Shown here in pieces: positions 54 to 44,274 of a stretch of 64,000 nucleotides of DNA. This DNA comes from a virus. The stretch is taken from IMG/VR virus record IMGVR_UViG_3300037575_000021, positions 31,314-95,313 of that record, one strand, 5' to 3'. The translations under genes were made by a program, and so were the position numbers. Under the pieces are notes generated by a model. It was not told the DNA's origin and ran no database searches. It worked only from the letters and a program-made list of their open reading frames with translations. Positions within the stretch are counted from its first letter, which is position 1; the number at the start of each line of letters is the position of its first letter.

Positions 54-127
54 TGGTGCCTAACCACAGAATCGAACTGCGAATAGCTGATTACAAAACA
101 GCCGTTATACCATTTAACTAGTCAGGC
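54..127 (-). tRNA. tRNA-Thr (TGT)
   Basis: Acceptor strands GCCTGAC and GTTAGGC pair over seven positions and the 3' end has encoded CCA. The anticodon loop TTTGTAA gives TGT. One U-U mismatch closes the anticodon stem. The T loop is of the normal TTCGATT type. Confidence 0.8.
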
Positions 128-142
128 ATTAAAACTTATAGG

Positions 143-217
143 GGTGGCCTCACGGATTCGAACCGAGGACATACCAGACTCACAATCTGATGCAATTGAC
201 CACTCTGCCAAGGCCAC
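143..217 (-). tRNA. tRNA-His (GTG)
   Basis: Acceptor GTGGCCT pairs with AGGCCAC, discriminator C as usual for His. Anticodon loop TTGTGAG gives GTG, and the T loop is TTCGAAT. The 3' end reads CCC rather than CCA, so CCA is probably added or repaired post-transcriptionally. Confidence 0.85.
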
Positions 218-285
218 ACCTATAAGCTCTAAATAAGAACTCCCACGTAAGTTTAAAACTAAGAGGCGGGAGCCGTGTTAATTAT

Positions 286-359
286 TGGTACTAGGTGATG
301 GTAACGCTCCACCGTCGCACCGTTATCAGCGGTGTGCTCTACTTTTGAGCTAACCCAGC
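286..359 (-). tRNA. tRNA-Ile (GAT) with atypical T loop
   Basis: Acceptor GCTGGGT pairs with ACCTAGT (including G-U pairs) and CCA is encoded. The D arm is canonical, and anticodon stem CACCG/CGGTG encloses loop CTGATAA, anticodon GAT. The T stem forms (GGTGG/CCATC), but its loop is AGCGTTA instead of TTCRANY, so the usual T54/C56 D-loop contacts are absent. It may be a degenerate or specialised tRNA. Confidence 0.65.
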
Positions 360-370
360 ATTATTCTTTA

Positions 371-515
371 TGGAGCGGGCCTATGGATGCACATAGGGAT
401 CGTCCCGCATAACCTCACCTCACGGTGGCATCTAAATGTCTGGTGGAAGGCACCTTTACAGTATGTAAGTGTCTCACCGTTATCTTCATAAGACCTTCAC
501 TTATCACCAGACAAA
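371..515 (-). ncRNA. Unassigned structured RNA segment between tRNAs
   Basis: About 145 nt between tRNA-Gln and tRNA-Ile does not fold into a canonical tRNA but is strongly structured. An 8-bp stem GTCTGGTG/CACCAGAC, spaced like a tRNA acceptor stem, encloses about 57 nt without a recognisable T loop. Further 3' there is a nested hairpin with GCGGG/CCCGC and CCTATG/CATAGG stems, ending in encoded TCCA. It could be a decayed tRNA pair or an RNA of different function cut out of the tRNA precursor. Confidence 0.35.
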
Positions 516-517
516 TA

Positions 518-594
518 TGGCAGGGGTGACACGATTCGAACGTGCGATCACGGGATCAAAACCCGATGCTTTAGGCCAGCTAAGCTACACCCCG
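518..594 (-). tRNA. tRNA-Gln (TTG)
   Basis: Anticodon loop TTTTGAT within a GC stem gives TTG. The T loop is TTCGAAT, discriminator G with encoded CCA, and pair 1-72 is weak, which is a glutamine identity feature. Confidence 0.85.
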
Positions 595-605
595 ATAAAA
601 CTGTT

Positions 606-679
606 TGGAGTCCAGTATAGGATTTTAACCTATCTCTCAAGGGTTGCAGCCAAGCGCATAGTCACTCTGCCAACTGGAC
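606..679 (-). tRNA. tRNA-Cys (GCA)
   Basis: Acceptor GTCCAGT pairs with ACTGGAC, followed by TCCA (discriminator U, a Cys identity element). The anticodon loop CTGCAAC gives GCA, although the anticodon stem holds two U-U mismatches. The T arm is ATAGG/CCTAT with loop TTAAAAT. Confidence 0.75.
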
Positions 680-687
680 ATAAACTT

Positions 688-784
688 TGGCGGAAGCGTA
701 GAGATTCGAACTCTAACACCCTTTCAAGGATCGACGGTTTTCAAGACCGCTGCCAGTACCCAGACTCTTTTGGCTTACACTTCC
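688..784 (-). tRNA. tRNA-Ser (TGA)
   Basis: The class II tRNA has a long variable arm, the anticodon loop CTTGAAA gives TGA, T loop TTCGAAT, acceptor GGAAGTG/CGCTTCC, discriminator G and encoded CCA. Confidence 0.9.
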
Positions 785-795
785 TAAATTTTAAA

Positions 796-873
796 TGGTA
801 GGCCAAGGCTGATTCGAACAGCTCCTTCTACCGTTTATGAGACGGTGGCTTTAACCTATTAAGCTATTGGCCC
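796..873 (-). tRNA. tRNA-Met (CAT), first copy
   Basis: Anticodon stem ACCGT/ACGGT encloses loop CTCATAA (CAT). Acceptor GGGCCAA pairs with TTGGCCT, discriminator A, CCA encoded. It lacks the three G-C pairs in the anticodon stem of an initiator, so it looks like an elongator. Its 5' end is 2 nt from the next tRNA's CCA. Confidence 0.85.
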
Positions 874-875
874 AT

Positions 876-951
876 TGGTTGTCATGAGTGGAATTGAACC
901 ACTATCCTCTTCCTTATGAGGGAAGCGCATAAACCATTCTGCCACATGACA
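876..951 (-). tRNA. tRNA with CAT anticodon, second copy (Met or lysidine Ile2)
   Basis: Acceptor TGTCATG pairs perfectly with CATGACA, followed by A and CCA. Anticodon stem CTTCC/GGAAG holds loop CTCATAA (CAT). It differs clearly from the neighbouring CAT tRNA, so one of the two may be a tRNA-Ile with a lysidine-modified anticodon; sequence alone does not decide. Confidence 0.8.
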
Positions 952-952
952 T

Positions 953-1195
953 TTAACTTCTGGAGACAACATTGGTTTGTTGCCAGTTAGACCAGACCTC
1001 TACGGACTTGATCTTAGTTGGAGAGTATCCACTATAATCAAAGGGATCTTTCGGGCCTTTATCGGCTTCCCTGAACTTAATATCAACCTCTACAGAACTG
1101 TATGGAACCTGTGCCTTAGTGGCAAAGTCATTTTTAATTAATTCAATCACATCTCCCTGTGTAAGAGTTGTGGACTTAACTGATTTTATTTCCAT
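953..1195 (-). CDS. Small protein encoded inside the tRNA cluster
   Basis: An 80-residue protein of unknown function starts at ATG behind a strong GAGGAGG site. Its 3' end lies one nucleotide from the 5' end of the CAT tRNA at 876-951, so mRNA and tRNAs are almost certainly on one precursor and tRNA 5' processing would trim the mRNA right after its stop. The product is soluble with mixed charge and no motif I recognise. Confidence 0.7.
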   Translation of the reverse strand: MEIKSVKSTTLTQGDVIELIKNDFATKAQVPYSSVEVDIKFREADKGPKDPFDYSGYSPTKIKSVEVWSNWQQTNVVSRS

Positions 1196-1221
1196 ACAAT
1201 CCTCCTCGAATTCTTAACTTT

Positions 1222-1306
1222 TGGTGCTCCCAGAGAGACTCGAACTCTCACACCCGAAGGTACTGGAATCTAAACCCAGCGCGTCTACCAATTCCACCAC
1301 AGGAGC
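1222..1306 (-). tRNA. tRNA-Leu (TAG)
   Basis: The class II tRNA has a variable arm with a TTCG tip, the anticodon loop TTTAGAT (TAG), T loop TTCGAGT, acceptor GCTCCTG/TGGGAGC, discriminator A and encoded CCA. Confidence 0.9.
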
Positions 1307-1307
1307 T

Positions 1308-1383
1308 TGGAGCATCTAGAGGGAATCGAACCCTACTCACTATGGCTTGGAAGGCCAAGGACTAAACCCGTTAGCTTAGATGC
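1308..1383 (-). tRNA. tRNA-Gly (TCC)
   Basis: Acceptor GCATCTA pairs with TAGATGC, with the glycine discriminator U and encoded CCA. Anticodon stem TTGGC/GCCAT holds loop CTTCCAA (TCC), and the T loop is TTCGATT. Its CCA abuts the 5' end of tRNA-Leu. Confidence 0.9.
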
Positions 1384-1390
1384 TTTTAAA

Positions 1391-1409
1391 GAGACCCAAG
1401 AAGGGTCTC
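1391..1409 (-). terminator. Hairpin terminator after the Ro60-like gene
   Basis: A perfect GAGACCC/GGGTCTC stem with a 5-nt loop is followed on the minus strand by TTTAAAA. It lies between the stop codon of the Ro60-like gene and the tRNA-Gly 5' end. A second inverted repeat (AGTCCCA/TGGGACT) overlaps the stop codon itself. Confidence 0.6.
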
Positions 1410-1427
1410 ATAAGTCCCAGTATGGGA

Positions 1428-2894
1428 CTAGAACGAATAACGTTCTTTGTTAACTGTCTCCAACATCATATCAATTGGCGTTACGTTCTTGCAAGACAAG
1501 ATTGAACGCATGATAGCTGGTGAGAAACCACTTACTAGTGCAGCCCCTTTGTCATTAACAGTCACAGAGCTGTTACCCTCACGAGCTTTAATGTTCCAGA
1601 AGATGATATCAGGTAGTTCATATCCAGCTTCTTGGTATGCACTACTTGCGTACTGTAAGGCTGTCTTATTCCACTTGCCAGCATCGTGACGACCACCGTA
1701 TCCGTAAGAGTTGCCACCTGTACATGAGTCAAACTCCATGTCACTTAAGATCAAGATCTTAGTTGGCATTTCCTCTTGAGGAACTCCTGCTCGTACTGCG
1801 TTGTCAAGCACTGTTTGGAACGCTTTGGCGATATCAGTATTCATACCCCAACCAGAACGTTTGCACTGAAGCATACGATCATACAGGCTCCCGTTCAACT
1901 TAACGAGTTGTGGGCTGCCAGAGAACGTTAAGAATGTATCCTTAAACTTACCTTCAAGTCGTTCTGAGATGTATAAGCCTAAGCTCACAGCTACATCCAT
2001 ACAGGTAACAGTACCGCTTCCGCCTGCAGAGCAACCCATAGATCCACTCACATCTACCATTGGTAGGATTCGTTCATCAGAACCTCCTAGGTAATCTGGT
2101 AAAGCATCCCACTGAGCATTAGCCGCTTGTGACTCACCACGTACCATAGACTTCATGATATCGTATGGGTAAACAGCTCCAGCGTTGATCTTAACTGACT
2201 TAGCAATTTCAGGATCTTTGCTAGTCAATGCATCTAAGTATGCACGGTAACGATCTTCGCAGTTACGTAAGAATGCTTTCTGATAACGTGCTGAAGCAAC
2301 TGAAGGTAGCTTCGAGAAATCGATAGAATCGAAATCCTTAGCTGATAACTTCTGCTCAACTGTATCAGACAAGTTCTTAAGGGCTACACGCCACATCTTA
2401 GGTGTGATGTATCGACCTGTAACTTCCTGAACGTGCTTACGAAGCCCGTTAGCAATTTTCTTCTGACGAGGCATCCACTTGGCACACAGACCATCTTTAG
2501 CCTCTAATGCTGTACGGATCATCTCGTATGCAGCATACTTTGTCTTTTGGTTGGTGAAGACCAATAGGTCATCCCAACGACCAACCTCAGGAATCAAATG
2601 CATGAAGCGTAGAACCTGCGAAGGATCTGTCTTGTCTAGGTACACTAGGAAATCACGGAAAAGTTGGCGTTCACCAGCTCCACCACGAACGTCTCGTGCC
2701 CATAGCATGATTCGGGTTGCTAAATCCTTGTCGCCAGCGTTGTAGGCTGAAGACATAAGATTTACGATATTCTTACCACGAGAGGCACCCACTGCTCCAA
2801 ATAGATCTACACATGGATCCATTGAAGATAGGTTAGTTTTGCCACCGTTGGCTGTGCGGCCTTCTGTATTAAAGGCCTCCATTAATGATGTCAT
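1428..2894 (-). CDS. Ro60-like TROVE/von Willebrand A protein
   Basis: The 488-residue protein has an N-terminal helical-repeat region (RDVRGGAGER near residues 68-76, IPEVGRWDDL near 101-110) and a C-terminal vWA domain. The metal-ion site D281-V-S-G-S is intact, with a second-site TD near residue 353 and LSDMEFD near 387. This is the architecture of Ro60/Rsr, a ring protein that binds Y RNAs and misfolded RNA; the related DUF2828 family looks similar, so family assignment should be confirmed. It starts at ATG behind GGAGGG. Four Y-RNA-like units lie immediately upstream on the same strand and tRNAs immediately downstream, which strongly supports an RNA-binding role. Confidence 0.85.
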   Translation of the reverse strand: MTSLMEAFNTEGRTANGGKTNLSSMDPCVDLFGAVGASRGKNIVNLMSSAYNAGDKDLATRIMLWARDVRGGAGERQLFRDFLVYLDKTDPSQVLRFMHLIPEVGRWDDLLVFTNQKTKYAAYEMIRTALEAKDGLCAKWMPRQKKIANGLRKHVQEVTGRYITPKMWRVALKNLSDTVEQKLSAKDFDSIDFSKLPSVASARYQKAFLRNCEDRYRAYLDALTSKDPEIAKSVKINAGAVYPYDIMKSMVRGESQAANAQWDALPDYLGGSDERILPMVDVSGSMGCSAGGSGTVTCMDVAVSLGLYISERLEGKFKDTFLTFSGSPQLVKLNGSLYDRMLQCKRSGWGMNTDIAKAFQTVLDNAVRAGVPQEEMPTKILILSDMEFDSCTGGNSYGYGGRHDAGKWNKTALQYASSAYQEAGYELPDIIFWNIKAREGNSSVTVNDKGAALVSGFSPAIMRSILSCKNVTPIDMMLETVNKERYSF

Positions 2895-2924
2895 GATTGA
2901 CCCTCCTATTTATATTGAGTTTAT

Positions 2925-2953
2925 ATGGTAACACATTTTGTGTTGGTTGTCAA
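2925..2953 (-). promoter_or_regulatory. Sigma-70 promoter of the Ro60-like gene
   Basis: TTGACA and TACCAT are separated by 17 bp on the minus strand, about 30 bp before the ATG. The -35 box begins 8 bp after the last Y-like RNA, so RNA and protein can be transcribed separately. Confidence 0.7.
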
Positions 2954-2960
2954 TAGGTTC

Positions 2961-3026
2961 TGAGCAATTTTTGCTTTTCAAGGCTTCCAATAGTTTTGAA
3001 AATAGTATTTTTGCTGAAGTTGCTCA
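2961..3026 (-). ncRNA. Y-like RNA unit 4 (no tRNA module)
   Basis: A 66-nt unit is closed by a perfect 7-bp stem TTGCTCA/TGAGCAA. It shares with units 1-3 the 5' internal motif CAGCAA and the 3' motif GCAAAAA, but has no T or D arm. It sits immediately upstream of the Ro60-like gene promoter. Identification rests on shared architecture with neighbouring units, not on a database match. Confidence 0.55.
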
Positions 3027-3044
3027 TTAGTTCTAAATTGTATC

Positions 3045-3108
3045 AGGGCAAATCCTAAACGTAGTTTGATTAAAAGTCAAATGTTTTGGGTATTGCTGTA
3101 GTTGCCCT
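3045..3108 (-). ncRNA. Y-like RNA unit 3, carrying a Lys-type anticodon arm
   Basis: A 64-nt unit is closed by the 7-bp stem AGGGCAA/TTGCCCT and followed by the CTGA seen after units 1-3. It has the 5' motif ACTACAGCAA. Its centre is a 5-bp stem with a 7-nt loop, TTTGACTTTTAATCAAA (3065-3081), matching a tRNA-Lys(UUU) anticodon arm. No acceptor, D or T arms are present, so it is not a tRNA. Confidence 0.6.
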
Positions 3109-3165
3109 TTAAGTATTTATCTAGTATAAGCCCTCGTGGGAAGACCTATAGTGGATAATTAAGTC

Positions 3166-3255
3166 AGGCTAATTTGTTTGCACCATTGCAATCTCCAAAG
3201 TTGGCTGGAAATAAAGGAATCGAACCTCTAAAGTTATGTTTGCTGTAGTTAGCCT
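3166..3255 (-). ncRNA. Y-like RNA unit 2, circularly permuted tRNA mimic
   Basis: A 90-nt unit is closed by AGGCTAA/TTAGCCT. Inside, in permuted order, are a T arm (AGAGG/CCTTT, loop TTCGATT), acceptor 3' strand ATTTCCA with G and CCA, a 4-nt linker, acceptor 5' strand TGGAGAT (pairs over 7 bp with one G-U) and a reduced D-arm-like hairpin TTGCA/TGCAA. The motifs ACTACAGCAA and GCAAACAA flank the module. No anticodon arm is present; the closing stem occupies that position. Confidence 0.75.
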
Positions 3256-3267
3256 TTAAATTGTTTC

Positions 3268-3403
3268 AGGTTCCTGTTGTTTGCGTCTGCTGCTCTACCA
3301 ACTGAGCTACCCCTTGTCAATGTAAGTTTAAGTGGTCAAGGGGGCTGGACTCGAACCAGCGACCAACAGTATCCATTAGCATTATTGTTGCTGCAAGGAA
3401 CCT
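3268..3403 (-). ncRNA. Y-like RNA unit 1, circularly permuted tRNA mimic
   Basis: A 136-nt RNA is closed by the 8-bp stem AGGTTCCT/AGGAACCT. It contains, in order, a T arm (GCTGG/CCAGC, loop TTCGAGT), acceptor CCCCTTG with A and CCA, a 16-nt linker (3317-3332), acceptor CAAGGGG and a fully canonical D arm. The acceptor strands pair perfectly over 7 bp but stand in reversed order, so the gene is a tRNA opened at the anticodon. Bacterial and phage Y RNAs encoded beside Ro60 are known to contain tRNA-like domains. It has its own strong promoter 23 bp upstream. Confidence 0.85.
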
Positions 3404-3425
3404 TTAAATCTTTATCTTGGTGCCC

Positions 3426-3453
3426 ATTATACATACTTTGATGTAAAAGTCAA
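3426..3453 (-). promoter_or_regulatory. Promoter of the Y-like RNA array
   Basis: TTGACT and TATAAT lie 16 bp apart on the minus strand, with no room upstream of unit 1 for a normal tRNA 5' half. This shows the permuted order is what is transcribed, rather than a broken normal tRNA. Confidence 0.8.
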
Positions 3454-3471
3454 GCACTTTTTAAATTAATT

Positions 3472-3557
3472 TGGCGGAAGATATAGGATTCGAACCTATG
3501 CACCGTTTCCGATGTACTCCTTAGCAGGGAGCTGCGTTACCACTCTGCCAATCTTCC
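3472..3557 (-). tRNA. tRNA-Ser (GCT)
   Basis: The class II tRNA has the anticodon loop CTGCTAA (GCT), a variable arm with a GAAA-type tip, T loop TTCGAAT, acceptor GGAAGAT/ATCTTCC, discriminator G and encoded CCA. Confidence 0.9.
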
Positions 3558-3565
3558 TGAAATCT

Positions 3566-3697
3566 CTATTCAGACTTCCCTTTCTTCTTGGTTGTATCCT
3601 TCGGCTTACGTCGATAGTTAACGCCAGCGTTAGATTTATCTCCCCAAGAATGGGAAAGGAATATGTACTCAAATTCTTTTTGGTATGGTCTTGACAT
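3566..3697 (-). CDS. Small basic protein between tRNA-Ser and tRNA-Asn
   Basis: A 43-residue reading frame starts at ATG behind GGAGG (3705-3709) and encodes a product beginning MSRPYQKEFEY and ending in a lysine-rich tail. Its stop lies 8 bp from the 5' end of tRNA-Ser. Function is unknown; the clear ribosome binding site and operon-like position support it being real. Confidence 0.6.
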   Translation of the reverse strand: MSRPYQKEFEYIFLSHSWGDKSNAGVNYRRKPKDTTKKKGKSE

Positions 3698-3790
3698 AAT
3701 TTATCCTCCGTCTGATTGTAATATGCATAAATAAACCTATTATCTATGATTATAGCCCTAATATATCTTTTTATACATATTAGGAATATT

Positions 3791-3866
3791 TGGCTGGCAT
3801 AGCTGGACTCGAACCAGCATACGTCTGATTAACAGTCAGGTCGCCTACCTAGTAGCGCATATGCCA
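3791..3866 (-). tRNA. tRNA-Asn (GTT)
   Basis: Acceptor TGGCATA pairs with TATGCCA, discriminator G, CCA encoded. Anticodon loop CTGTTAA gives GTT, and the T arm is GCTGG/CCAGC with loop TTCGAGT. Confidence 0.9.
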
Positions 3867-3884
3867 ATAAATCTTCTCCCCTGA

Positions 3885-4030
3885 AAAACTGGTGGGCTTT
3901 GCGCCCACCGAAAGCAATGTTCAAGAATAAACATTACAGAGGAGGGTACTCTTTAGCCCTCAAAGGCTTAAGGATAGACCCAGCTGTTCTGGATATATTC
4001 CTAAACCCTCTAAGATTTCCGAAGATATAT
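3885..4030 (-). ncRNA. Orphan structured small RNA with promoter and terminator
   Basis: A strong promoter (4037-4064) starts an RNA of about 145 nt that ends in hairpin GGTGGGCGCAAAGCCCACC followed by AGTTTTT. No credible reading frame lies in between. A long-range pair GAGGGT/ACCCTC (near 4005-4010 and 3942-3947) encloses hairpins CCAG/CTGG and AGCC/GGCT, suggesting a multibranch fold. The family is unknown to me. Confidence 0.6.
3888..3910 (-). terminator. Terminator of the orphan small RNA
   Basis: Stem GGTGGGC/GCCCACC with a short AAA-type loop is followed on the minus strand by AGTTTTTC. Confidence 0.75.
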
Positions 4031-4129: not shown

Positions 4130-4405
4130 AGGGATCCCCTCCGGGGAAGGTCTTACTATAAGGTATAACCATTAGTAATCCTTGCGGAGCTATTAGCTAT
4201 CCTAATAGGATCTACCTTATGGGTTAAACCCTTAAGTCTATATAACTAATTCAATTAATAATCTATTCAAATCAATAACTTAAAGGTAACAACCCTTAAG
4301 GTTTAACCTATTTGATCGATCATTTGTGATTGATTAAGTGAATTAAGCTTAGTCTAAATAGTCATCCTTAAATGGAGAGCCTTTAAGTAATAACCCATAA
4401 GTGTA
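4130..4405 (-). ncRNA. Putative leader or second noncoding RNA
   Basis: The second promoter points into about 340 bp without a credible gene, reaching the small-RNA promoter. The stretch is rich in short inverted repeats such as AACCTTAAGGGTT and CCTTATAGT-type elements, and holds a GAAA-loop hairpin AAGGC/GCCTT near 4103-4116. It may be one long structured transcript reading through into the small RNA. Boundaries are a guess. Confidence 0.35.
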
Positions 4406-41791: not shown

Positions 41792-42685
41792 TTGGGCTAT
41801 GTAAAAGAAGAGTACCAGAAAAAGGTTAAACCAGTGACTCCTAGAGAGACACTAGAAGAGGTTTTAACCTACCCAATCAAAGGTTTCGCTGACCGTGGTA
41901 TAACAACCAAAACAGCACAACACTTCGGAGTACGTACTAAACTAAGTAGTGCAGATGGAGTGACACCAATAGCTATCTATTTCCCATACACGGAAATACA
42001 AGAAGATGGCTCAAGAAAAACAGTAGGCTTTAAGAAAAGAGACCTCACTAAAAATAAGAAAGATCGTGGGTATTTCACCACCATAGGTAATGTGGCCAAG
42101 GAATCTGTGGACTTATTCGGTACAGATTGTGGTAACACAACAGGTGGTAAAAAGATCATGATAACGGAGGGAGAATTTGATTCCATGATTGTGTATCAAG
42201 TTCTCAAAGAGAAGTATTCTAAATCCAACCCAACGGTAGTATCTATCGGGTTTGGTACGGCTAATGCTGTTGGACATCTAGGTCAGAAGCATGTACAGAA
42301 GTTCTTACGTAAATTCAAAGAGACAATCGTAGGGTTTGATAACGATTGTGCTACACCTGAGGAACGTAAGAAGGGAATCATGAAAGGTCAGGAAGCAACC
42401 CACGCTGTGTATGGCTTAATGCCAGACATTATGGTGGCACACTTACCTGAGAACCAAGACCCATGCGATATGTTCAAACGTGAAGGTTCAGAGCAGTTGT
42501 ACTGGGCATTCATGTCACCTAAGAAGTTTACACCTGAAGGTTTCATTCAGTTTAGTGATATCCGTGAGAAGTCAATAGAGTTGCCAACTATTGGGCGACC
42601 TTGGCCATGGCCCACTATGACGAAGAAAACCCTAGGTAGGCGTGAAGGTGAGGGGTATTACATCGGTGCTGGTGTTAAGATGGGT
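41792..42685 (+). CDS. TOPRIM-helicase (primase-helicase type), exon 1
   Basis: Exon 1 (298 codons, TTG start behind AGGAG) encodes a TOPRIM domain: ITEGEFDSM (about residue 126) and VGFDND (about residue 189), then the beginning of a DnaB-type helicase ending in GAGVKMG, the first half of the Walker A motif. No N-terminal zinc finger is seen, as in Twinkle-like rather than T7 gp4 proteins. Exon 2 at 43396 begins with KST, so splicing of the intron at 42686-43395 restores GAGVKMGKST and a 590-residue protein. Unspliced mRNA stops at the first intron codon. Confidence 0.92.
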
Positions 42686-43395
42686 TGACTTTGGCCCATG
42701 TAAAAGGTATTGAATTCAGGGGACACCTAGAACAGGCAATCCTGAGCGAAATTTAGATTAGTAGGAGGCGGTGTGAGACCCATCCAAATAGAAAACTGTG
42801 AGCACTATTCTGTAACTGAGTGCGGTAAAGTCAAAAATACAAACACAGGAAGACAGCTTAAGTACGATCTTTCTAGTGGAGGGTATAGAAGGGTGACCCT
42901 GTGGTCATCTGACCAAAGACGTATAAGAATAGCGGTTCATAGGTTAGTAGCTATGACCTATCTGTGCAACCCTGATGGGAAGCCCATGGTTAATCACAAA
43001 GATGGCGATAAGCTTAACAACCATAAAAACAACCTTGAGTGGGTTACCTGTAAAGAGAACACTACCCATGCCTTTAAAGAGGGATTACGGAAAGGCCCTA
43101 ATCGGCTGCCTGATAATGTTGTGATTGGTGTTAAGAAGGATAGAGAGGCGGGTATATTGACAGCCTCCCAAATTCGCCAAAAGTATGGGCTATCTAGAAG
43201 CCGGTACAGTGATATAAATAGGTACTATAAAGATCTAATCTGAAGACGTGCAACGACTATCCCGGAAGGGAGTACACCCAAGCGGGTGGAAGCGGTACCC
43301 ACCGAAAGGTGATGATATAGTCTGATCTGCATGGGGACATGCAGCAGTTCATAAGAGAACGGCTCAGGAATTAGCGACCCTGAGTGAACATAATG
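42686..43395 (+). mobile_element. Group I intron in the helicase Walker A motif
   Basis: The 710-nt element has the expected ends: last exon base U and last intron base G. Exon ATGGGT pairs with internal guide GCCCAT (42695-42699 region) including the U-G wobble at the splice site. Core elements seen are GGCAATCCTGAGC (42735-42747, Q-type), ACGACTATCC (near 43254) and GATGATATAGTC (near 43311, S-type), which pair as P7. It carries an HNH gene between guide and core. Confidence 0.9.
42773..43243 (+). CDS. HNH homing endonuclease with NUMOD domains
   Basis: The 156-residue protein starts at GTG behind AGGAGG. It has an N-terminal NUMOD4-like segment (YSVTECGKVKN), the HNH core VHRLVAMTYL...VNHKDGDKLNN...NLEWVT (residues 56-92) and a C-terminal NUMOD1-like helix (GILTASQIRQKYGLSR). 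It probably cleaves intronless helicase alleles, moving the intron. Confidence 0.92.
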   Translation: MRPIQIENCEHYSVTECGKVKNTNTGRQLKYDLSSGGYRRVTLWSSDQRRIRIAVHRLVAMTYLCNPDGKPMVNHKDGDKLNNHKNNLEWVTCKENTTHAFKEGLRKGPNRLPDNVVIGVKKDREAGILTASQIRQKYGLSRSRYSDINRYYKDLI

Positions 43396-44274
43396 AAAAG
43401 CACATTCCTCGATCAGTTGTGTGAGTTCATTATCACCAATGAAAGGGACGTAGATGGCAACCCACAGAAGGTAGCACTCTTCAAGTTTGAGGAGCAGCCT
43501 GATGAGACCCTGAAGAAGTTAGCTGGTAAGTTCTATCGTAAGGATTTCTCTAACCCTGAAAAGATATTGTTTATCGATCAAGAGGGTAACGAGGTAGATA
43601 TTTGGGGCAACCCTATACTGGATAGCTCTACGTTCTACACTCAAGGTGATCTGATGCAGGCAGTGGATGATGTAGGCCCTAACGTTATCCTATATAACAA
43701 CTATGGTCGATGCCACTGGGATGAACTGAAAGGTGCTATCCGACATGCTGTACTGGTTGAGAAGGTGAAGGATATCTTTATTGATCCTATCACACGATTG
43801 ACTGCAGGGATGAATGCCTCAGAGGCCAACACTGAACTAGAGACCTTCTCGGATGAGATCAGTAAGATGGCTAAGGACTTAGGGTTCACCTTCTACTGCT
43901 TCTGTCACTTGAAGGCTCCAGAGAAAGGGGCACCACATGAGCAGGGCGGGAAGGTTTTCTCCAGTCAGTTCCGTGGATCCCGAGCTATGATGCAGAGCTG
44001 TTACTACACTTGCGGTATCGAGGGCAACAAAGACCCAGAGCTACCAGTCAAGGAGCAGAACACTCGCTACCTGAGCATACTGGATGACCGTAAACACGGT
44101 AGAACCTGTAAGTTCCCAGTCTTCTACGATGAGGATACTGGCAGCTTCCTAGAGCCTCCTGAGGGCTTCCTAGAGAGCGATTGCCAAACACTGGCCCAAT
44201 TCTATAGCGGAGGGTCAAGTATCCATCATGAGGAATTTGAGGAGCATACAGCACCATTTCAACCAGATTTCTAA
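43396..44274 (+). CDS. Helicase, exon 2
   Basis: Exon 2 (292 residues after splicing) begins with KSTFLDQLCEFIIT, the second half of Walker A, and continues with the RecA/DnaB-type helicase core: FIDPITRL (Walker B type), FYCFCHLK and a SSQFRGSRAMMQS arginine-containing segment. A free ATG (43384) just before the exon is in the intron and is unlikely to be used on its own. The DNA polymerase gene follows. Confidence 0.92.
   Translation, partial: KSTFLDQLCEFIITNERDVDGNPQKVALFKFEEQPDETLKKLAGKFYRKDFSNPEKILFIDQEGNEVDIWGNPILDSSTFYTQGDLMQAVDDVGPNVILYNNYGRCHWDELKGAIRHAVLVEKVKDIFIDPITRLTAGMNASEANTELETFSDEISKMAKDLGFTFYCFCHLKAPEKGAPHEQGGKVFSSQFRGSRAMMQSCYYTCGIEGNKDPELPVKEQNTRYLSILDDRKHGRTCKFPVFYDEDTGSFLEPPEGFLESDCQTLAQFYSGGSSIHHEEFEEHTAPFQPDF

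What the first reader, a model, noticed from the sequence alone, without database searches (positions are those of the whole stretch)
42686..43395. Group I intron splitting the helicase Walker A motif
The intron lies exactly between G and K of GAGVKMG|KST, one of the most conserved sites in helicases. An in-frame stop begins at the intron's first base. Splicing is therefore essential for replication and could be a control point.
Basis: partly seen in the sequence, partly recalled or inferred. Interest (0 to 1): 0.6.

Follow-up and report, generated by a model that had tools for sequence, protein, structure and literature searches.

The report
Mobile intron inside phage helicase P-loop
A self-splicing intron that carries its own DNA-cutting enzyme gene sits inside the ATP-binding loop of a phage's DNA-replication helicase; this is a familiar kind of genetic parasite in a good hiding place, and its relatives sit at three neighbouring spots in the same loop in other phages.

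Summary
A primase/helicase gene (PHROG 239) is interrupted at 42685|43396 by a 710-nt group IA2 intron, 42686-43395. It splits Walker A as GAGVKMG|KST, and a TGA starts at the intron's first base. P1, P3-P9.2 and the terminal G are all present. P3 covaries in 118 of 119 cells across 17 related introns. Contigs with about 93% identical flanking DNA lack the insert exactly at this point. The P6a loop holds a 156-aa HNH endonuclease related to 1u3e. The intron core is 83-84% identical to introns in phages whose helicase is only about 34% identical, so it moved horizontally.

Around it, introns occupy three sites within 12 nt of the same Walker A codons, and one relative has an intein at GK|S. Cores group with phage lineage rather than exact site, which suggests shifts between neighbouring sites.

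'Essential' is a fair inference. 'Control point' has no support, because early in-frame stops are normal in such introns. This is a new member of a known kind; splicing and cleavage are untested.

The parts
41792..42685 (+). Exon 1 of primase/helicase: TOPRIM-type primase part up to GAGVKMG of Walker A (start codon TTG 41792 is the ORF caller's)
   Evidence: PHROG 239 E 1.2e-62, profile positions 86-370; ORF
42686..43395 (+). Group IA2 intron, 710 nt, begins TGA and ends in G
   Evidence: RF00028 32.8 bits; empty site in L008-L010; covariation
42680..42685 (+). 5' exon strand of P1, AUGGGU (U at -1)
   Evidence: pairs 6 of 6 with 42694-42699, with U.G at the splice site
42694..42699 (+). Internal guide sequence GCCCAU (P1)
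42706..42712 (+). P3 5' strand GGUAUUG, pairs with 43293-43299
42715..42746 (+). P4-P5 (P4 42715-42720 with 42741-42746; P5 inside)
42752..42761 (+). P6a 5' strand, pairs with 43235-43244
42763..42768 (+). AGGAGG, probable ribosome-binding site of the HNH ORF
   Evidence: inference
42773..43243 (+). HNH homing endonuclease ORF (156 aa, GTG start), inserted in the P6a loop; its last codons form the P6a 3' strand
   Evidence: Pfam HNH_3 7.9e-7 and NUMOD4 1.4e-5; PHROG 59 3.3e-39; PDB 1u3e chain M 1e-13
43235..43244 (+). P6a 3' strand, overlapping the HNH stop codon
43255..43259 (+). P7 5' strand GACUA, pairs with 43318-43322 (guanosine-binding helix)
43260..43288 (+). P7.1 and P7.2 linked by GUA: the IA2 hallmark
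   Evidence: criterion from PMC3428280
43293..43299 (+). P3 3' strand CGGUACC
43300..43311 (+). P8 hairpin
43318..43322 (+). P7 3' strand UAGUC
43327..43384 (+). P9, P9.1 and P9.2 hairpins
43396..44274 (+). Exon 2 of primase/helicase, beginning KST of Walker A
   Evidence: PHROG 239 E 2.4e-65, profile positions 371-611, continuing directly from exon 1

Best explanation
This is a mobile, self-splicing group IA2 intron with an HNH homing endonuclease gene in its P6a loop, inserted in the Walker A codons of a phage primase/helicase gene. In the RNA, P1 pairs the last six exon bases (AUGGGU) with the guide GCCCAU. A guanosine bound at P7 attacks after the U, the freed exon attacks after the terminal G, and the exons join to restore GAGVKMGKST. 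In DNA, the HNH protein cuts or nicks intronless helicase genes in co-infecting phages, and repair copies the intron in. The Walker A site is favoured because its sequence is conserved across phages and because only an exact deletion would restore the helicase. Shown: anatomy, covariation, exact empty site, horizontal relationship. Inferred: splicing in the cell, cleavage, selection for the site.
For: Complete core and terminal G. P3 covariation 118/119 cells, shuffle maximum 103. P1 complementarity with U.G at the splice site in the intron and its relatives, changing in step with the exon at other sites. Exact empty site in three contigs with about 93% identical flanking DNA. Spliced frame open for 590 codons, and PHROG 239 continues from position 370 to 371 across the join. 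HNH related to 1u3e and to PHROG 59. Intron core 83-84% identical to introns in phages with only 34% identical helicases, but 65% identical to the intron in its nearest intron-bearing helicase relative. RT-PCR and sequencing showed splicing of HNH-carrying introns in the related phage CB7 (PMC7344957).
Against: The Rfam score is below the gathering threshold. No RNA or cleavage data exist for this phage. The HNH target cannot be tested here. One intron in phage CB7 and one in Aeh1 are reported not to splice.
Confidence: 0.93

Rival explanations
1. The insertion does not splice: the gene is split, and exon 1 (primase) and exon 2 (helicase) are made as separate proteins that assemble, as reported for Aeh1 NrdA with mobE.
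For: In-frame stop at the junction. Exon 2 has an in-frame ATG at 43393 and a GTG at 43384 inside the intron end. Non-splicing insertions are reported in Aeh1 and CB7.
Against: All core helices are kept and P3 covaries, so the ribozyme is under selection. The split would remove the P-loop glycines from the motor fragment. The same-site relatives read here (L018, L002) have no start codon at the equivalent place. I saw no strong ribosome-binding site before 43393.
Confidence: 0.04
2. Splicing of this intron is a deliberate control point that times helicase production and replication.
For: The helicase cannot be made without splicing, and T4 intron splicing is reported to depend on translation (PMC11878797).
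Against: Very close phages lack the intron, 117 of 125 unique loci surveyed have an intact Walker A, and the intron arrived horizontally. No conserved sensor element was seen.
Confidence: 0.05
3. The intron with its HNH serves as a weapon against co-infecting intronless relatives rather than being a pure parasite.
For: Precedent: the phiPA3 intron endonuclease against phiKZ (PMC12908238). Intronless relatives with about 93% identical flanks exist.
Against: Untested. It adds to homing rather than excluding it.
Confidence: 0.25

Closest known systems
Pf-WMP3 DNA polymerase group IA2 intron with I-PfoP3I (PMC3428280)
   Same: IA2 with P7.1 and P7.2 linked by G-U-A, no P2, HNH ORF starting in P6a, AGGAGG ribosome-binding site
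   Different: Host gene is the DNA polymerase; there the ORF runs into P7, here it ends in the P6a 3' strand
I-HmuI-type HNH nicking endonuclease (PDB 1u3e; SPO1 intron)
   Same: N-terminal and HNH regions align over residues 11-105, E 1e-13
   Different: No detected match in the C-terminal part; target and strand preference unknown
HNH introns of Pectobacterium phage CB7 (PMC7344957), whose primase/helicase is related
   Same: Intron-borne HNH genes in replication and packaging genes of a related large phage, splicing shown by RT-PCR
   Different: CB7 introns are in terminase, polymerase and nrd genes; its helicase CB7_80 has an intein
Group I introns at the same Walker A in L002 (phage KZY1), L004 (phage W70), L005 (HSd1), L006 (HP1)
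   Same: Same gene family, same ribozyme class
   Different: L002 uses the same site; the others sit 10-12 nt upstream; none is annotated as an intron in its record
P-loop inteins, such as the mycobacteriophage TerL-a and TerL-b inteins (PMC5050341)
   Same: Mobile element inserted in Walker A codons, adjacent sites used
   Different: Those splice as protein; this one splices as RNA

Membership tests
Group I intron | P1 with U.G at the 5' splice site formed by exon and guide sequence | tested here: met
   AUGGGU/GCCCAU
Group I intron | P3-P8 and P4-P6 core with P7 guanosine-binding helix | tested here: met
   RF00028 alignment, fold, P3 covariation; P7 by complementarity only, its strands nearly invariant
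Group I intron | Intron ends in G | tested here: met
   43395 is G
Group I intron | Rfam RF00028 gathering score | tested here: not met
   32.8 bits against 50; a threshold, not a structural feature, and the 0.5-kb ORF probably lowers the score
Group I intron | Guanosine-initiated self-splicing | not testable with these tools
   needs RNA
Subgroup IA2 | P7.1 and P7.2 linked by GUA between P7 and P3 | tested here: met
   43260-43288; criterion in PMC3428280
HNH homing endonuclease | HNH_3 domain with conserved N-H and N residues | tested here: met
   HNH_3 29.1 bits against cut-off 24.8; NUMOD4 25.6 against 23.4; 1u3e
HNH homing endonuclease | Cuts or nicks the intronless allele near the insertion site | not testable with these tools
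   needs a cleavage assay
Mobile (homing) intron | Intron-plus and intron-minus alleles at one exact site, and horizontal spread | tested here: met

The most novel reading that the evidence does not exclude
Group I introns in this helicase P-loop repeatedly shift between neighbouring insertion sites (0, 2 and 12 nt) while keeping their ribozyme core, by swapping the P1 guide module, so one motif acts as a multi-site landing pad. The clearest case is L195 (KMG|KS) against L005 (GAG-GT|G): 99% identical 3' domains and 94% identical helicases, with both boundaries moved by exactly 10 nt.
Probability: 0.45. Interest if true: 0.5.

Novelty: new member of a known kind. Interest (0 to 1): 0.33.

Why it matters
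It adds a clean case of an intron in the catalytic P-loop of a replicative helicase, with a near-identical intronless allele available for homing tests. The surrounding survey shows the same dozen bases holding introns at three sites, with HNH or LAGLIDADG ORFs or none, and an intein in one relative. It is a natural system for asking how RNA and protein splicing elements compete for one conserved motif and how an intron changes its insertion site.

Tried and rejected
Rfam at gathering score gave no intron hit, so the permissive search was used. Co-conversion in the 3' exon flank: 5 of the first 9 bases of exon 2 differ from L008, but an equal cluster occurs at -120, so it is not significant alone. 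P10 (CUUU with exon +2 to +5 AAAG) looks possible in the window, but by inspection the same-site relatives do not keep it, so it is not claimed. An independent helicase translated from the exon 2 in-frame ATG was considered and rejected: no equivalent start in L018 or L002 and no strong ribosome-binding site seen. A second helicase copy: none found in the 95-kb record, but the record may be incomplete. Erwinia phage VL73 (L003) first looked like a Walker A intron but inserts elsewhere in the gene. Literature searches for introns in a helicase Walker A found none described; the library is open-access only, and staphylococcal phages are reported to have introns in helicase genes at unstated sites (PMC5526547).

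Full report
Observation. The window is part of a 95,313-base uncultured virus record. At 41792-44274 a primase/helicase gene is split. Exon 1 matches PHROG 239 at profile positions 86-370 and exon 2 at 371-611, so the family profile runs straight across the join. Removing 42686-43395 gives one open frame of 590 codons with GAGVKMGKST intact.

Proof that it is an insertion. Three IMG/VR contigs (L008-L010) have helicase-region DNA about 93% identical to the window and encode a 97% identical helicase. They lack the insert exactly at 42685|43396. Their sequence there reads GGT AAG TCA ACT; the window reads GGT | AAA AGC ACA, the same amino acids.

Proof that it is a group I intron. Rfam RF00028 aligns end to end (32.8 bits, E 2.5e-6; gathering score 50). 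P1 is AUGGGU with GCCCAU, U.G at the splice site. An unconstrained fold of the core with the ORF loop removed gives P1, P3, P4, P5, P6a, P7.1, P7.2, P8, P9, P9.1 and P9.2; P7 is the expected pseudoknot, GACUA with UAGUC. P7.1 and P7.2 joined by GUA place it in IA2 by the criterion in PMC3428280. Across 17 related introns P3 pairs in 118 of 119 cells with up to four pair types per position; the best of 2000 shuffles reached 103. The intron ends in G.

The endonuclease. The ORF 42773-43243 encodes 156 aa with NUMOD4 and HNH_3 and matches the HNH homing endonuclease 1u3e over residues 11-105. An AGGAGG lies just upstream, and the last codons form the 3' strand of P6a.

Mobility. The window intron's core is 84% identical to L006 and 83% to L117, whose helicases are only 34% identical to the window's. 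It is 65% identical to the intron in the intron-bearing locus with the nearest helicase, L011 at 64%. The intron therefore did not descend with the gene. Stretches similar to parts of the intron region are found in hundreds of phage records (670 records). The same P1 pairing pattern occurs in 79 viral stretches, most of them outside this helicase.

A crowded motif. In this helicase family introns occupy three sites within 12 nt: GAG|VKMGKS (L004, L011, L019, L296), two bases into the V codon (L005, L006, L119), and KMG|KS (window, L002, L018, L069, L117, L125, L127, L172, L195, and the exon 1 side in L207). P1 changes to match each site. L063 instead has an intein at GK|S with Hint and homing-endonuclease domains. 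In the loci returned by the helicase queries, 117 unique Walker A motifs are intact and 8 interrupted, 7 by introns and 1 by the intein. These counts depend on the patterns used and on my de-duplication. A few loci needed hand correction: L004, L019 and L115 were first scored intact and are excluded from the 117.

Site shifts. A tree of intron cores has three starred pairs, each joining introns from different sites: L195/L005, L069/L004 and L172/L296. Core similarity follows helicase similarity (Mantel r 0.39, p 0.0002) and not site (r 0.09, p 0.23). For L195/L005 the 3' domains are 99% identical and the helicases 94%, yet both boundaries differ by exactly 10 nt. Shift of an existing intron or recombination between introns could each give this. 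The sample is small (17 introns, about 200 columns), so this is a lead, not a result.

Function. The best account is a selfish homing intron that protects itself by sitting where only perfect removal is tolerated; this logic is stated in reviews (PMC2988022; PMC12908238). Early in-frame stops are regarded as helping introns fold rather than as regulation (PMC3984707), and every Walker A intron here has one within about 10 codons. Splicing is probably needed to make the helicase. Nothing found supports a regulatory role. Whether the HNH also harms competitors is open. Splicing and cleavage remain untested in this phage, although HNH introns in the related phage CB7 do splice (PMC7344957).

Noticed in passing
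G000:C1:27865-28704 (minus strand, outside the window; locus L051): A second group I intron (RF00028, E 3.4e-9) with an HNH-like ORF, apparently interrupting the terminase large subunit gene not far from its own P-loop region (read by eye).
   Followed up: partly
L063:4026-4998: An intein with Hint and LAGLIDADG-type domains inserted between K and S of the same helicase Walker A.
   Followed up: yes
L195:4405-5129 and L005:2380-2664: Introns with 99% identical 3' domains in 94% identical helicases, but inserted 10 nt apart with different P1/P2 modules and only one carrying an ORF.
   Followed up: partly
L019 (intron between exon 1 end near 2910 and exon 2 start near 4276): The GAG|VKMGKS intron here carries a LAGLIDADG_2 endonuclease instead of HNH: two endonuclease families at one motif.
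   Followed up: yes
L004 about 3182-3978, L005 about 3172-4005, L006 about 3175-3427: A second interruption of the same helicase gene downstream, near the conserved QFxGSRAMM motif, probably another intron site.
   Followed up: no
window 57-3866, minus strand: A cluster of ten predicted tRNA genes.
   Followed up: no
window 43384-43398: The last three intron bases, ATG at 43393, are in frame with exon 2 and would give MKST...; no equivalent start in L018 or L002.
   Followed up: partly
PQ867851.1, PQ867849.1 and OP778610.1 (L002, L005, L004): Public records annotate the intron-split helicase as separate primase/helicase, hypothetical or HNH genes with no intron feature.
   Followed up: yes
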